Source: Mycobacterium senriense
Lineage (GTDB): Bacteria; Actinomycetota; Actinomycetes; Mycobacteriales; Mycobacteriaceae
NCBI RefSeq assembly: GCF_019668465.1
Contig: NZ_AP024828.1
Coordinates: 434,001-498,000 of the forward strand
DNA: 64,000 nucleotides
Direction: 5' to 3'
Position numbers and translations under genes: made by a program. How positions within the stretch are numbered: position 1 is the first letter of the stretch; every line of letters begins with the position of its first letter. Below the pieces are notes generated by a model, which ran no database searches, was not told the DNA's origin, and worked only from the letters and a program-made list of their open reading frames with translations. Below, piece by piece: positions 36,887 to 43,216 of the stretch.

Positions 36887-36929
36887 GCCCGCAGAAATGC
36901 GTCTGCGGATATGCCAAACAGGAGGCGCA

Positions 36930-38726
<1,797 letters not shown>

Positions 38727-38792
38727 AGCTCCCTGAGAGTTTTGTCAGACAGCGTTGTCGGCCCTGGCCATCGCGAGTAGGGTTTCGGTCAA

Positions 38793-38818
38793 GGTTGAGT
38801 TCACAGCCGCCCGGGATA
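38793..38818 (+). promoter_or_regulatory. Weak SigF-like promoter for the STAS gene
   Basis: GGTT (38793-38796), 16 bases, then GGGATA (38813-38818). The mycobacterial SigF consensus is GGTT/GTTT-N15-17-GGGTA, so the -35 and spacing fit and the -10 is one step off. The implied 5' leader of about 95 bases contains the stem-loop described next. Confidence 0.35.
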
Positions 38819-38903
38819 CGTCAGTGACGTGGGGGTAGGCGGAATTCCCTCCTTCTCCGAACGTTGTGCGCGTGGCTGACGTATCCACAGGAGGAATCCT
38901 CCT
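38814..38903 (+). other. Structured leader upstream of the STAS gene
   Basis: GGATACGTCAG (38814-38824) is complementary to CTGACGTATCC (38876-38886): an 11-bp perfect inverted repeat, extendable with mismatches, enclosing about 50 bases. The left arm is itself part of the palindrome ACGTCAGTGACGT, so two alternative pairings exist. Right after the right arm lies AGGAGGAATCCTCCT (38889-38903), another near-perfect palindrome. The region could form a switching RNA leader or bind protein as DNA. Confidence 0.5.
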
Positions 38904-38921
38904 CGATGGATGGAGTCAGCG

Positions 38922-39338
38922 ATGTCTGTGGCGCAATCTTGGCAGCAAAGCCGCACAGCACAATTCACCGCCCGCTGGGGCCCGACGGGCACCTTGATCA
39001 CGGTGGACGGCGAGCTCGACGCGGCCAACACCGATCAGCTCGTGGCGTACGTGGCGCAGAGCACCAACCGCTCCCGGCGGATGGTCCTCGACCTGCGCGG
39101 CCTGAAATTCATTGGTACCGCGGGCTTTTCGGCGCTGCACCGAATCAACGTGAAATGCTCGGCCGCCCAGGTGTCCTGGGCCATGGCGCCGAGCCCGGCG
39201 GTGGCCAGGTTACTGCGGGTCTGCGACCCGGACGGCACCCTGCCGGTGACGACGCAGCAGGCCGAGCCGCTGCTGGAACCGCTGTGGGTTGAGGAAGAGC
39301 CCCGGCCGCTACTGCAGCTGGTCACGGAGCCGCGTTAG
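38922..39338 (+). CDS. STAS-domain anti-sigma factor antagonist
   Basis: A 138-residue single-domain STAS protein: LITVDGELDAANTDQLVAYV, then MVLDLRGLKFIGTAGFSALH, where the Thr after FIG is the expected phosphorylation site in place of the usual Ser. Such proteins bind the anti-sigma factor kinase and free the sigma factor when unphosphorylated. It lies next to and convergent with sigF, overlapping its 3' end by 30 bases. ATG 38922 has GGAG 6 bases upstream and is preferred; ATG 38910 is in frame but spaced badly from any ribosome-binding site. I recall no STAS gene here in H37Rv, where accA3 is followed directly by sigF. Confidence 0.85.
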   Translation: MSVAQSWQQSRTAQFTARWGPTGTLITVDGELDAANTDQLVAYVAQSTNRSRRMVLDLRGLKFIGTAGFSALHRINVKCSAAQVSWAMAPSPAVARLLRVCDPDGTLPVTTQQAEPLLEPLWVEEEPRPLLQLVTEPR

Positions 39339-40097
39339 CGACTTCGCCAGCAACCGCGACACGTGCATCTGGGAGATGCCGACCCGCTCGGCGATCTGCG
39401 TCTGCGTCATCGACTCGAAGAATCGCAGCACCAACACGGTTCGCTCGCGCTCGGGCAGCGCCTCGAGCAGCGGACGCAGCGCTTCCTGATCCTCGATGCG
39501 GTCCAGGCCGGTGTCGACGTCGCCGAGGGTGTCCGCGATCGCGCGGGCTTCCTCCTCCTCGCCGCCGCCACCGCTGTCGATGGACAGGGTGTTGTACGAG
39601 CTGCCGGCCACCAGGCCCTCGACGACCTCTTCGCGGTCCATGTCGAGTTCCGCGGCGAGTTCGGTCGCGGTGGGCGCGCGGCCAAGCCGCTGCGACAGGT
39701 CGGCGGTGGCGGTGCCCAGCCGCAGGTGCAGTTCCTTCAGCCGCCGCGGGACCTTGACCGACCAGCTGTTGTCGCGGAAGTGGCGGCGGACCTCGCCCAT
39801 GATCGTGGGCACCGCGAAGGAGACGAAGTCCGAGCCGGCGTCGACGTCGAAGCGGACCACCGCGTTGACCAACCCGACGCGGGCCACCTGAACCAGGTCG
39901 TCACGCGGTTCGCCGCGGCCCTCGAAGCGACGCGCGATGTGATCGGCGAGCGGTAGGCACCGCTCGACGATCTTGTCCCGTTGACGTTGAAATTCCATCG
40001 AGTCCGGCGTGACGGTCGCCAACTCACGGAACATGTCCGGAACATCGGCGTATTCGTTCGGACGCGATACCGAACCGCCGGCAGCTCGCGCTGTCAC
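39309..40097 (-). CDS. sigF: SigF, stress/stationary-phase sigma factor
   Basis: A 262-residue sigma-70 group 3 factor. Region 2 reads CLPLADHIARRFEGRGEPRDDLVQVARVGLVNAVVRFD; region 3 has GEVRRHFRDNSWSVKVPRRLKEL; region 4 has TVLVLRFFESMTQTQIAERVG and ISQMHVSRLLAKSL. Nearly identical to my recollection of Rv3286c. It recognises GGTT/GTTT-N16-GGGTA promoters, several of which lie within 2.5 kb. GTG start overlaps the usfX stop by 4 bases, giving coupled synthesis of sigma and anti-sigma. Confidence 0.96.
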   Translation of the reverse strand: MTARAAGGSVSRPNEYADVPDMFRELATVTPDSMEFQRQRDKIVERCLPLADHIARRFEGRGEPRDDLVQVARVGLVNAVVRFDVDAGSDFVSFAVPTIMGEVRRHFRDNSWSVKVPRRLKELHLRLGTATADLSQRLGRAPTATELAAELDMDREEVVEGLVAGSSYNTLSIDSGGGGEEEEARAIADTLGDVDTGLDRIEDQEALRPLLEALPERERTVLVLRFFESMTQTQIAERVGISQMHVSRLLAKSLTRLRDQLQ

Positions 40098-40531
40098 CTG
40101 CTGGAGGCCGCCCGTCGCGCCGTCAGTGTGATGCCGAACACACTGCCGGTTTCATTGGGTTCGCGACCGTCATGGAAAGTCTGGACGTCGTCGGCGAGCG
40201 ACGTCAGCACGTGCCAACTGAAGCTTCCGGGCGCCACTACATCGTGGGTGTCGCAGGCCGCGGAAGCTTCCACCACCAATTGGTCATCCTGCGGATCGAC
40301 CACGACGATCAGGGTCGCGTCGGGAGTGGCCGAACGAATCAACCGGGTGCACACTTCGTCGACCGCGAGCCGCAGGTCCGCCACCGCATCGAAATCCAGG
40401 TCCTCGAAGGTGCCGATGGCACCGACCAGGGTGCGCAGCATTGCCAGGTTCTCCAGTCGCGCAGCAACGTGAAGCTCGACGGCGCGATGGCCGCGCGGAC
40501 GCTCAGTAGCGTGCAATCCAGCATCCTTCAT
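40094..40531 (-). CDS. usfX: UsfX (RsbW), anti-SigF factor
   Basis: A 145-residue GHKL-type anti-sigma factor. Conserved RAVELHVAARLENLAMLRTLVGAIGTFED, then AVADLRLAVDEVCTRLIRSA (helix with the N-box Glu/Asp region). It binds SigF and is released by STAS antagonists. ATG 40531 is chosen because GGGAG lies 6 bases upstream and it gives the exact 145-residue length of Rv3287c; the frame opens 27 codons earlier with an unrelated sequence. First gene of usfX-sigF. Confidence 0.94.
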   Translation of the reverse strand: MKDAGLHATERPRGHRAVELHVAARLENLAMLRTLVGAIGTFEDLDFDAVADLRLAVDEVCTRLIRSATPDATLIVVVDPQDDQLVVEASAACDTHDVVAPGSFSWHVLTSLADDVQTFHDGREPNETGSVFGITLTARRAASSR

Positions 40532-40602
40532 ATGGTCTCCCGGCAATGTTCGACTGACACTACTACTGCTTCGCAGTCCGCCGTGGACCTCGCGATCGAG
40601 CC

Positions 40603-40628
40603 GGTTAGTCATGATCGCCGCCGGGTAT
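40603..40628 (+). promoter_or_regulatory. SigF promoter reading rightward, away from usfX
   Basis: GGTT (40603-40606), a 16-base spacer and GGGTAT (40623-40628) match the SigF consensus exactly. It points to the plus strand, opposite to usfX. Transcription would start near 40635 and run through the small membrane ORF at 40696, into the antisense of the usfX-sigF leader. Confidence 0.65.
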
Positions 40629-40630
40629 TC

Positions 40631-40649
40631 GGCCCGCCGCGGGCGGGCC
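40631..40649 (+). other. Strong GC hairpin at the predicted 5' end of the rightward SigF transcript
   Basis: GGCCCGCC-GCG-GGCGGGCC is a perfect 8-bp stem with a 3-base loop, located 3-21 bases after the -10. If the transcript starts near 40631-40635, its 5' end would be locked in this stem, which can protect RNA from decay. No T-tract follows, so it is not a standard terminator. Confidence 0.55.
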
Positions 40650-40695
40650 TGACACCACCGACACAGTCGCGACGCGCCGGTGAAGGCGCGTCGCG

Positions 40696-40803
40696 GTGAT
40701 CGCCGGGGACACGGTGGTCATATCGATAGTCGTTGCAGTAGGCATAGTTGGAGTAGGCATATATGTCGGTGTGCTCGCAATCTTGTTCCCCACGATGGGG
40801 TGA
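40696..40803 (+). CDS. Candidate 35-residue SigF-driven membrane peptide
   Basis: A GTG-started ORF (MIAGDTVVIS...) encoding 35 residues, almost all Val, Ile, Gly, Ala and Leu in the middle: a single transmembrane helix ending FPTMG. GAAGG lies about 9 bases upstream, and an in-frame TGA at 40681 fixes the start. It follows an exact SigF promoter by about 60 bases. Codon use is unlike the neighbours: four ATA codons in 36, rare in mycobacteria. A 9-base word GTAGGCATA occurs twice 15 bases apart. The leader of usfX-sigF would be antisense to it. Resembles type I toxin-like peptides in size and layout; function unknown. Confidence 0.45.
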   Translation: MIAGDTVVISIVVAVGIVGVGIYVGVLAILFPTMG

Positions 40804-40848
40804 CCACGCTAACGCAACCGTTCCGGCACTCATCATGGTGCAAACCTG

Positions 40849-40874
40849 ATACCCACAAGTCAGCGCCCGTAACC
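40849..40874 (-). promoter_or_regulatory. SigF promoter of usfX-sigF
   Basis: On the minus strand GGTT (40874-40871), a 16-base spacer and GGGTAT (40854-40849) match the SigF consensus exactly. Transcription would begin near 40842 and read a leader of about 310 bases before usfX. This is the autoregulatory promoter expected for the locus. It faces the rightward promoter at 40603, so the transcripts overlap for about 200 bases. Confidence 0.7.
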
Positions 40875-40978
40875 TCGGAATTACCTTTCAAGCAAAATTT
40901 CACACCGCCCCGCGTCGTGGCAGGTCACCGCCGAAAAAGCCGCGAGAAAGCGCGCACTACGCTAGTCGGCGGCGGGTG

Positions 40979-41290
40979 TCAGCTGGCCGGCCACTGCCGG
41001 TGCACCTCGGGATGCTCGGCGTACCAGCGATCGGCGATCCGGCGAATCCTGCGGTGCTCCACCGCGAGCCACGCCAGCCCGAGCACAGCGGCGATGACCG
41101 CGACGATCCCCGCCGTCACGCCCACGTGGTGATGTCCGCTGCCGAAGGCCGCAAGACTGCCGCAGGCCCCGATCACGCCCGCGACGACCAAGAGATACCC
41201 GGGCCAGTGCAGGACGTCGATCAGCGACTCGCCGGCCAGCGGCCGCGTGGTCCTCAGATGGTCGACGGGGTCGTGGTAGGTGTCTCCCAT
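40979..41290 (-). CDS. usfY: UsfY, small membrane protein of the SigF operon
   Basis: A 103-residue protein starting MGDTYHDPVDHLRTTRPLAG, as I recall for Rv3288c. Two transmembrane helices (about residues 30-48 and 54-75) are followed by a basic cytoplasmic tail (EHRRIRRIADRWYAEHPEV). The ATG has GAGGAG 5 bases upstream. Known to be SigF-dependent in mycobacteria; molecular role unknown. It lies between the Rv3289c-like gene and the usfX promoter. Confidence 0.9.
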   Translation of the reverse strand: MGDTYHDPVDHLRTTRPLAGESLIDVLHWPGYLLVVAGVIGACGSLAAFGSGHHHVGVTAGIVAVIAAVLGLAWLAVEHRRIRRIADRWYAEHPEVHRQWPAS

Positions 41291-41337
41291 GGCTGCTCCT
41301 CACCGCACCATCAACGTTAGATCGCGGGAGAACAAAC

Positions 41338-41721
41338 CTAAAGAGCCAGCACCAGCCCGGCGATCGGAGCGACACCCATCGCGACCATCAGCGCCATCGC
41401 GGTCAGCAGGAACCAGCCCGCGCCGTGCCATCCCCACCACGTGCCCCGGGCCTTCCACACCAGATAGGTGCGCACAAACGCCCAGATCCCGGCGGCGAGC
41501 GCGATCAGCGGGCCCCCCAACGCCAGCAGGGTGCGCTGCGGCGCGCCACACGCCACCGTGTCCACGCTGACCCCCGGGCAGGTGCTCACCCACACCGCGG
41601 CGATCAAGAGGAAGCCGACCGCGGCCAGCGTGGACAGCACGGCAAACCGGATGGCGGCATGCACCTCGCCGTCCTCCTGACCCAAGCGGTCACCGCCGGA
41701 TCGAGCATCCGCTTTCTGCAT
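41338..41721 (-). CDS. Small integral membrane protein (Rv3289c-like)
   Basis: A 127-residue protein with a short charged N-terminus and three or four transmembrane helices (about 25-45, 65-85, 100-125). The motifs STCPGVSVDTVACGAP (two Cys, likely external loop) and WKARGTWWGWHGAGW are visible. The start has a strong ribosome-binding site (GGGAGG). It is preceded by an exact SigF promoter and followed after 47 bases by usfY, so both form a SigF-driven unit. Function unknown. Confidence 0.85.
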   Translation of the reverse strand: MQKADARSGGDRLGQEDGEVHAAIRFAVLSTLAAVGFLLIAAVWVSTCPGVSVDTVACGAPQRTLLALGGPLIALAAGIWAFVRTYLVWKARGTWWGWHGAGWFLLTAMALMVAMGVAPIAGLVLAL

Positions 41722-41829
41722 CGTTGGTCACCTCCCTCAGGGGCCCGCGCTTGGTACATCGCTCGCTACGTCGCATTAGTTACCGGGCATCATCACCGCG
41801 CTGGTAGCAGCGGAAGGCGCACGGAACAA

Positions 41830-41855
41830 ATACCCCGCAGCAAACCGGGGTAAAC
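41830..41855 (-). promoter_or_regulatory. SigF promoter of the Rv3289c-like/usfY unit
   Basis: On the minus strand GTTT (41855-41852), a 16-base spacer and GGGTAT (41835-41830) match the SigF consensus. It lies 109 bases before the ATG of the Rv3289c-like gene, in the gap downstream of lat. Confidence 0.7.
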
Positions 41856-41874
41856 GCGCTCGATGTGAGGTCAA

Positions 41875-41891
41875 GGCCCTAGCGCAGGGCC
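41875..41891 (-). terminator. Possible hairpin at the lat 3' end
   Basis: GGCCCT-AGCGC-AGGGCC forms a 6-bp GC stem with a 5-base loop, overlapping the lat stop codon. There is no T-tract. It may terminate or punctuate lat transcription before the SigF promoter of the next unit. Confidence 0.35.
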
Positions 41892-43216
41892 CGCAGCGCG
41901 GCGCGCACGGCGCGCAGGGCTGCGTCGATCTCCGCGCGCGAGACGGTCAGCGCCGGACGGAACCGGACACCGTCGTGTCCCGAGGGCAGCACGATCACCG
42001 CTTGGCGCCACAGCAGGCGGATCAGCGCGTCGCGGTCGGCGTTGGTCGGCACGCTGAACGCACACATCAGGCCACGGCCGCGGGGGTCGAGCACCAGGCC
42101 GGGAAATTCGCCGGCGAGCTCGTCGAGGCGCGCATGCAGGTAGGCCCCTCGTTCGGCGGCCCGGTCGAACAGTCCGTCGGCCTCGACCACCTCCAAGATT
42201 CGGCGGGCGCGCACCATGTCGGCCAGGTTGCCGCCCCACGTCGAGTTCACCCGGGAGGACACCGCGAACACGTTGTCGCGGACCTCGTCGACCCGGCGGC
42301 CGGCCATGACCCCGCACACCTGGGTCTTCTTGCCGAACGCCACCACGTCGGGTTGCACGCCCAATTGCTGGTAAGCCCAAGGCGTTCCGGTCAGGCCGCA
42401 GCCGGTCTGCACCTCGTCGAAGATCAGCAAGGCGTGGTACTCGTCGCACAGCTCGCGCATGGCCGCGAAGAACTCGGGCCGGAAGTGACGGTCGCCGCCC
42501 TCGCCCTGGATGGGTTCGGCCACGAAGCAGGCGATGTCGTGCGGGTGGGACTCGAAGGCCGCGCGGGCCTGGCGCAGCGACTCGGCCTCCAGCGCCGCGA
42601 TGGCCGCGTCGTCCAGGCCGGGCCGGAGGAACGGGGCGTCGATGCGGGGCCAGTCGAACTTGGGGAAGCGGGCCACCGTGACCTGCTTGGTGTTGGTCAG
42701 CGACAGCGTGTATCCGCTGCGGCCGTGGAACGCGCCGCGCAGGTGCAGCACCCGGGTGCCCAGCGCGGGGTCGATCCCGCGCGCTTCGTTGAACCGGCTC
42801 TTCCAGTCGAACGCCACCTTGAGCGCGTTCTCCACCGCGAGCGCGCCACCGTCGACGAAGAACAGGTGCGGCAGCGCCGGGTCACCCAGTACCCGGGCGA
42901 ACGTCTGCACGAAGCGGGCCATCGCCACCGAGTAGACGTCGGAGTTGCTGGGCTTGTTCAGGGCGGCCTGCGCCAGCTCGGCGCGAAATTCCTGGTCATC
43001 GGCCAGCGCGGGGTGATTCATGCCCAGCGGCGACGAGGCGAAGAAGGTGAACATGTCCAGGTAGCGCCGGCCGTCACGGGCGTCGTACAGGTAGGAGCCG
43101 GCCGAGCGGACCAGGTCGAGCACGAAGTCGAAGCCGTCGACCAAAATGCTGCGCGCCAGCACCTCGTGGACCCGGTCCGGCTCGGTGCAGGTGAAGCGTT
43201 CCAGGGTGGCGGTCAT
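41879..43216 (-). CDS. lat: Lat, L-lysine 6-aminotransferase
   Basis: A 445-residue class III PLP aminotransferase. Motifs: LDMFTFFASSPLGMNHPAL, VDGGALAVENALKVAFDWK, RGAFHGRSGYTLSLTNTK, IFDEVQTGCGLTG and FGKKTQVCG with the PLP lysine. It converts lysine plus 2-oxoglutarate to aminoadipate semialdehyde (cyclising to piperideine-6-carboxylate), the substrate of Pcd. It matches Rv3290c, strongly induced in starved or persistent M. tuberculosis. It lies 51 bases downstream of lrpA. Confidence 0.94.
   Translation of the reverse strand: MTATLERFTCTEPDRVHEVLARSILVDGFDFVLDLVRSAGSYLYDARDGRRYLDMFTFFASSPLGMNHPALADDQEFRAELAQAALNKPSNSDVYSVAMARFVQTFARVLGDPALPHLFFVDGGALAVENALKVAFDWKSRFNEARGIDPALGTRVLHLRGAFHGRSGYTLSLTNTKQVTVARFPKFDWPRIDAPFLRPGLDDAAIAALEAESLRQARAAFESHPHDIACFVAEPIQGEGGDRHFRPEFFAAMRELCDEYHALLIFDEVQTGCGLTGTPWAYQQLGVQPDVVAFGKKTQVCGVMAGRRVDEVRDNVFAVSSRVNSTWGGNLADMVRARRILEVVEADGLFDRAAERGAYLHARLDELAGEFPGLVLDPRGRGLMCAFSVPTNADRDALIRLLWRQAVIVLPSGHDGVRFRPALTVSRAEIDAALRAVRAALRALR

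What the first reader, a model, noticed from the sequence alone, without database searches (positions are those of the whole stretch)
40603..40874. Face-to-face SigF promoters make a SigF-driven membrane peptide transcript antisense to the usfX-sigF leader
Two exact SigF promoters (GGTT-N16-GGGTAT) lie 220 bp apart and point at each other: 40603-40628 rightward, 40874-40849 leftward into usfX-sigF. Their transcripts would overlap by about 200 bases. The rightward one starts in a strong hairpin (40631-40649) and encodes a 35-residue transmembrane peptide (40696-40803) with rare ATA codons. SigF would thus drive both its own operon and an antisense RNA to its leader: a possible self-limiting loop, or a type I toxin-like pair in which the sigF leader is the antitoxin.
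Basis: partly seen in the sequence, partly recalled or inferred. Interest (0 to 1): 0.78.

Follow-up and report, generated by a model that had tools for sequence, protein, structure and literature searches.

The report
Decayed SigF-driven small membrane protein gene
Facing the promoter of a mycobacterial stress regulator's own operon is a second promoter of the same type, which in many related species drives a tiny unstudied membrane-protein gene on the opposite strand; in this genome that gene looks like a decayed remnant.

Summary
Both exact SigF promoters are there, and they are the only closely facing pair among 17 such sites in this genome. The 35-residue ORF is not a new toxin-like gene. 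It is the membrane half of a small protein found widely in Mycobacterium: 42-55 residues, single helix, start codon 9-10 nt after a SigF-type -10 box, on the strand opposite the usfX-sigF leader. Of 117 strong HMM hits, 81 lie in genomes whose usfX place was listed, and 81 of 81 are adjacent and opposite. Open copies are under purifying selection (omega about 0.4, and 0.2 in the APMMQ type). No Pfam or NCBIfam family covers it. In the window and 7 near relatives an in-frame stop cuts off the basic N-terminus, and the remaining frame shows no clear constraint (omega 1.0; 0.70 by counting). The rightward promoter still matches in the window and 6 of those 7, so an antisense RNA against the usfX leader remains possible but unproven. 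A SigF-driven antisense RNA has a published precedent (AscarD). The type I toxin-antitoxin reading is not supported. Main result: an unnamed, genus-wide SigF-type gene nested antisense in the leader of its own sigma factor's operon.

The parts
40603..40628 (+). Rightward SigF-type promoter GGTT-N16-GGGTAT; in many relatives the start codon of the small gene follows 9-10 nt after the -10 box
40849..40874 (-). Leftward SigF-type promoter of usfX-sigF
   Evidence: 74 of 81 regions (window plus 80 named loci) have such a site
40639..40683 (+). Remnant of the N-terminal part of the small gene: no start codon at the ancestral start position, in-frame stop TGA at 40681-40683
   Evidence: alignment to relatives
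40696..40803 (+). 35-codon GTG frame: remnant of the membrane segment
   Evidence: HMM match in own genome with 1 TGA inside; omega 1.0 over 8 truncated copies
40737..40751 (+). 15 bp present in the window and absent from the aligned relatives shown; keeps the frame
40631..40649 (.). Inverted repeat across the expected rightward start point; folds in the leftward leader
40834..40836 (-). ATG 12 nt after the leftward -10 box, the first codon of a 75-codon frame (40609-40836) that ends in ATGA at 40612-40609; the body of the frame is not constrained
   Evidence: ATG at exactly this offset in 73 of 74 regions with a leftward site; omega 1.0 for the leftward in-register frame
40094..40531 (-). usfX (anti-SigF), with a Shine-Dalgarno-like GGGAG upstream; a longer in-frame start exists at 40612
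39309..40097 (-). sigF
   Evidence: NCBIfam NF005514, 495 bits against a cut-off of 372

Best explanation
The rightward SigF-type promoter is the ancestral promoter of an uncharacterised gene, widespread in Mycobacterium, for a 42-55-residue single-pass membrane protein with a basic N-terminus, read from a near-leaderless mRNA. The gene lies wholly opposite the 5' leader of usfX-sigF, so SigF would activate its own operon and this gene from facing promoters. In the window's lineage the gene has decayed: no start codon at the start site, a stop after codon 14, and a membrane-segment frame (the 35-residue ORF) without clear constraint. Shown by sequence: the promoters, synteny, spacing, selection and decay. 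Inferred: SigF dependence, translation, a role of the protein as a stress-induced membrane effector where intact, and, in the window, at most a short RNA without a working peptide that may mildly dampen usfX-sigF.
For: 81 of 81 strong hits with a listed usfX place are adjacent and on the opposite strand. In 49 of 117 unique regions the frame's start codon lies exactly 9 nt (20) or 10 nt (29) after GGGTAN, 45 ATG and 4 GTG. Codon-position differences 0.256/0.143/0.386 in 21 open frames; omega 0.37-0.39 free with 2dlnL 58 against omega 1, 0.2 in 16 APMMQ-type copies (p 1.9e-26), 1.0 in 8 truncated copies. In-frame stop at the same codon in the window, L031-L034, L036, L037 and L168. Published SigF-dependent M. 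smegmatis genes with the motif 9-10 from the start codon (PMC4694148, passages). One predicted helix.
Against: All 8 truncated copies keep an open membrane-segment frame and the window's extra 15 bp are a multiple of three; counting gives 0.70 rather than 1.0 for six of them, so weak constraint is not excluded. Only 20 of the 80 named loci, which were chosen by UsfX alone, have the near-leaderless arrangement; 34 have a homologue without it and 26 score as none. 69 of 150 listed usfX places have no strong neighbour. No transcript or peptide was seen; SigF dependence rests on promoter match.
Confidence: 0.8

Rival explanations
1. The facing pair is mainly an RNA device: the SigF-driven rightward RNA pairs with, or its polymerase collides with, the usfX-sigF leader transcript and limits SigF's positive autoregulation; the peptide is secondary and can be lost.
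For: A strict rightward SigF-type site persists in 22 of 44 regions with a decayed homologue and 11 of 40 scored as having none, against 1.1% of resampled regions. In ten gordonae-asiaticum regions with decayed frames the 26-bp promoter has 1 change while most flanking stretches have 0.5-1.0 per site. AscarD is a SigF-driven antisense RNA that lowers CarD synthesis (PMC8820732, abstract and passages).
Against: At least two of the 11 (L073, L098) hold decayed traces of the frame, so loss may be recent. The conserved spacer is not needed by SigF and coincides with the start region of a longer UsfX. In the window's clade the -10 has 2 changes in 6 sites, not clearly better than its surroundings, and L168 has lost it. 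PMC6448022 (passages) cites work that most antisense transcripts are noise.
Confidence: 0.25
2. The 35-residue ORF is a functional shortened membrane peptide in the window's clade, started at the GTG.
For: Frame open in all 8 truncated copies, start codon GTG or ATG kept in all 8; in-frame 15-bp extra; GAAGG 9 nt upstream.
Against: Omega 1.0; the basic N-terminus is lost, leaving no positive residue.
Confidence: 0.08
3. The rightward match is a by-product of the translation start of a longer UsfX (ATG 40612, MTNRL), not a promoter.
For: The -35 and spacer overlap that start and its upstream region; the extension gives omega 0.5 in 50 sequences.
Against: The -10 lies outside the extension. In APMMQ-type species the -10 keeps its 9-nt distance to the start codon without this overlap. 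Without the promoter part the extension gives 0.7, p 0.12.
Confidence: 0.08
4. Type I toxin-antitoxin-like pair with the sigF leader as antitoxin RNA.
For: Short hydrophobic peptide with a fully overlapping opposite transcript.
Against: Both RNAs would depend on the same sigma factor; the gene sits at one conserved chromosomal place under purifying selection; the partner is a long operon mRNA; no match in PADLOC above noise, Pfam or NCBIfam.
Confidence: 0.03

Closest known systems
SigF-dependent genes with the promoter motif 9-10 nt from the start codon in M. smegmatis, e.g. MSMEG_0521, 0670, 6211, 6768 (PMC4694148, passages)
   Same: SigF-type -35/-10 and start codon 9-10 nt after the motif (the paper's column is read here as distance to the start codon)
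   Different: The present gene is opposite the leader of usfX-sigF, very short, and no paper found in my searches describes it; SigF dependence not tested
AscarD, SigF-dependent antisense RNA to carD in M. smegmatis (PMC8820732, abstract and passages)
   Same: SigF-type promoter on the antisense strand of a regulatory gene
   Different: AscarD covers the carD coding region; here the overlap is the usfX-sigF leader, both strands carry SigF-type promoters, and the antisense strand encodes a protein in other species
Type I toxin-antitoxin loci (general knowledge, no call)
   Same: Short hydrophobic peptide with an opposite overlapping transcript
   Different: Same sigma factor on both strands, partner is an operon mRNA, conserved synteny, purifying selection

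Membership tests
SigF-type near-leaderless gene (open relatives) | SigF-type -10 close before the start codon | tested here: met
   49 of 117 unique regions, all at 9 or 10 nt; part of the loci were chosen for having hits
SigF-type near-leaderless gene (window copy) | Start codon 9-10 nt after the -10 | tested here: not met
   No start codon at 40639-40641
SigF regulon | Transcription lost without SigF | not testable with these tools
   Promoter match only
Conserved protein-coding gene | Purifying selection on the frame | tested here: met
   For open relatives: omega 0.4 and 0.2. Not met for the truncated clade: 1.0, 0.70 by counting
Regulatory cis-antisense RNA of the AscarD kind | RNA made on the antisense strand that changes expression of the sense gene | not testable with these tools
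   Facing promoters only
Type I toxin-antitoxin | Short hydrophobic peptide | tested here: met
   Best 19-mer mean hydropathy 2.73 in the window ORF, 3.1-3.3 in four relatives
Type I toxin-antitoxin | Separately controlled small antitoxin RNA | tested here: not met
   The opposite transcript is the usfX-sigF mRNA, from the same promoter type
Type I toxin-antitoxin | Toxicity of the free peptide | not testable with these tools
   No experiment
Known protein family (Pfam, NCBIfam) | Score above the curated cut-off | tested here: not met
   Three open homologues and the window ORF: best 16.6 bits against 25 in Pfam, none in NCBIfam

The most novel reading that the evidence does not exclude
Mycobacterium has a widespread self-opposing SigF module: SigF transcribes, from inside the leader of its own anti-sigma/sigma operon, a near-leaderless mRNA for a membrane microprotein that is also antisense to that leader. 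Microprotein and head-on transcription together tune SigF autoregulation, and in lineages such as the window's only the RNA half survives.
Probability: 0.25. Interest if true: 0.75.

Novelty: new variant of a known kind. Interest (0 to 1): 0.5.

Why it matters
SigF is a stress sigma factor of mycobacteria controlled by partner switching, and its operon is autoregulated (PMC7693655, PMC4694148, passages). A conserved membrane microprotein gene embedded opposite that operon's leader would be an unnamed member of the SigF circuit, and easy to delete and test. It is also a case of a promoter that can outlive its gene and leave an antisense transcript. The window shows the decayed state, so a lack of product in colombiense-like strains would not speak against the gene elsewhere.

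Tried and rejected
The 35-residue ORF as a new working gene: rejected as most likely a remnant, with the reservations given under evidence against. Type I toxin-antitoxin: see membership test. The leftward in-register frame as a protein: omega 1.0. The hairpin 40671-40695 as a conserved RNA element: 9 predicted pairs, 1 with a both-sided change, covariation term +0.24, that is, unfavourable. Rfam: no match up to E 1 in 38500-42500. Terminator for the rightward RNA: the two terminator-like sites in 40500-41400 are both on the - strand. Relatives outside the genus: 10 of 151 family genomes matched at E 0.001, 4 in the own genus and 6 elsewhere, the 6 being partial matches inside open frames of 261-789 aa. 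Solved structures by sequence: 0. M. tuberculosis was sought among 12 handles by an insertion-sequence end, 0 of 12, so its state is not tested here.

Print: no paper on this small gene or on facing SigF promoters at usfX was seen in the listings (open-access library, supplements not available), and only passages of seven papers were read (PMC8022548, PMC3898074, PMC8820732, PMC6448022, PMC4694148, PMC7693655; of PMC8820732 the abstract too). That is six papers with passages; none was read whole.

Full report
What was checked. The two exact SigF-type promoters are present and face each other across 220 bp. The genome has 17 exact GGTT-N15-17-GGGTAT sites against 9 for the reversed control, and by the listed coordinates only this pair faces at close range. 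The published consensus is GGWWT-N16-17-GGGTAY (PMC7693655, passages); both sites carry GGTTA, so the fifth base of the -35 differs. Family models name sigF (NF005514) and usfY (NF041247) above cut-off; the usfX product passes only a general Pfam ATPase model (PF13581), so usfX is named from synteny and general knowledge. UsfX of the nearest named relatives (M. colombiense strains and M. vulneris) is 98-99% identical.

The 35-residue ORF is half of something. Eighty named loci were fetched by UsfX. In more distant ones the same frame is longer: typically 49 residues, with a basic stretch (RTRRLKR) before the membrane segment and a start codon 10 nt after GGGTAT. In the window the corresponding position is not a start codon, and an in-frame stop ends the N-terminal part, with four codons between it and the GTG of the finding. 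L031-L034, L036, L037 and L168 share a stop at the same codon, TAA in two and TAG in five, TGA in the window. Other members of the complex lack the stop but several (L035, L038, L039, L046) lack a start codon at position 1. The window also carries 15 extra bp in frame.

Reach of the family. A 13-row profile matched 252 of 396 genus genomes at E up to 0.1, many weakly. Of 117 places with E up to 8.6e-6, 81 lie in genomes whose usfX place was listed, and 81 of 81 are on the opposite strand, 64-165 nt from the usfX match start; 69 of the 150 listed usfX places have no such neighbour. Of 20 further loci, 19 have usfX adjacent on the opposite strand and one (L158) does not. Of 49 near-leaderless frames, 47 are 42-55 residues long and two are longer. 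Outside the genus nothing convincing was found in 151 family genomes. Protein searches gave 59 proteins with one sequence and 679 with a profile (best 120 listed, 7990 candidates scored), mostly named hypothetical or membrane protein. No Pfam or NCBIfam model reaches its cut-off and no PDB chain matches. The model is one helix, mean pLDDT 84.

Promoter and start codon are coupled. Of 150 regions upstream of usfX, 117 unique, 49 have the homologous frame with a start codon exactly 9 nt (20) or 10 nt (29) after GGGTAN, 41 have a homologue without that arrangement and 27 score as none. Of 2438 ATG/GTG on that strand, 62 have GGGTA 8-10 nt upstream, the 49 presumably among them. Many loci were chosen for having hits; in the 80 named loci, chosen by UsfX alone, the numbers are 20, 34 and 26. 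Published SigF-dependent M. smegmatis genes show a value of 9-10 in the column I read as distance to the start codon (PMC4694148, passages), and leaders of 0-3 nt are translated in M. marinum (PMC8022548, passages).

Selection. For 21 open, gap-free 49-codon frames (two without a start codon at position 1; frames with gaps were left out) codon-position differences are 0.256/0.143/0.386 and the JC-corrected ratio is 0.40. Codon models give omega 0.37-0.39 free with 2dlnL 58 against omega 1, 0.4 on a grid for each half (p 6.6e-6 and 1.8e-10) and 0.2 for 16 APMMQ-type copies (p 1.9e-26). Eight truncated copies including the window give 1.0; their N part 0.7 (p 0.61); seven untruncated frames of the window's complex 0.7 (p 0.15 and 0.25); the opposite strand in register 1.0. 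Counting gave 0.70 for codons 18-49 and 0.98 for codons 1-14 of six truncated copies. Kappa was fixed on the grid, trees are from short alignments and p values are approximate. So the gene is constrained in the genus, weakly if at all in the window's complex, and not detectably in the window's clade.

Does the promoter have a life of its own? Over 134 regions (classes of the last 20 set by hand), a strict rightward site is present in 35 of 50 with the near-leaderless gene, 22 of 44 with a decayed one and 11 of 40 scored as none; first-order resampled regions show one in 1.1%. Two of the 11 (L073, L098) hold decayed traces. In ten gordonae-asiaticum regions the 26-bp promoter has 1 change while most flanking stretches have 0.5-1.0 per site, but the spacer is conserved too, which SigF does not need, and the site lies on the start region of a longer UsfX. 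In the window's clade the -10 has 2 changes in 6 sites (0.33 per site, surroundings 0.19-0.52) and L168 has lost it. An RNA-only role is open, not shown.

Mechanism committed to. Shown by sequence: facing SigF-type promoters, a conserved near-leaderless membrane microprotein gene opposite the usfX leader in many species, and its decay here. Inferred: SigF dependence, translation, a membrane role in the stress response, and any dampening of usfX-sigF by the opposing RNA (precedent AscarD, PMC8820732, abstract and passages). The window most likely makes a short SigF-dependent RNA without a useful peptide.

Noticed in passing
window 40834-40836 (- strand) and the 80 named loci: The usfX leader transcript has an ATG exactly 12 nt after the SigF -10 box in 73 of 74 regions with a site (60 have a second ATG right after it), although the frame that follows is not constrained; 57 of 73 such frames end in ATGA or GTGA, in the window on the longer UsfX start. 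Function unexplained.
   Followed up: partly
window 40532-40612 (- strand): In slow-grower-type loci UsfX has an in-frame N-terminal extension (MTNRLE...PGD) starting on the rightward promoter; omega 0.5 in 50 sequences, 0.7 (p 0.12) without the promoter part. A Shine-Dalgarno-like GGAGGTG precedes that ATG in L172.
   Followed up: partly
window 38910-39338 (+): A STAS-domain protein (Pfam PF01740, 44 bits), a possible anti-sigma antagonist, lies between accA3-like 36897-38726 and sigF.
   Followed up: no
L193, L200, L207, L208 upstream of usfX: Rightward SigF-type sites remain with no recognisable small gene, only 34-70 bp from the nearest facing -10-like hexamer.
   Followed up: partly
window 40671-40695: A perfect hairpin has the in-frame stop codon in its loop; near relatives carry other stop codons in the same loop. 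No covariation support.
   Followed up: partly
window 40979-43216 (- strand): usfY, a second short frame (41338-41721) and a lat-like gene lie upstream; their M. tuberculosis counterparts are published as one starvation-induced leaderless operon (PMC3898074, passages), so read-through into the usfX leader is possible.
   Followed up: no
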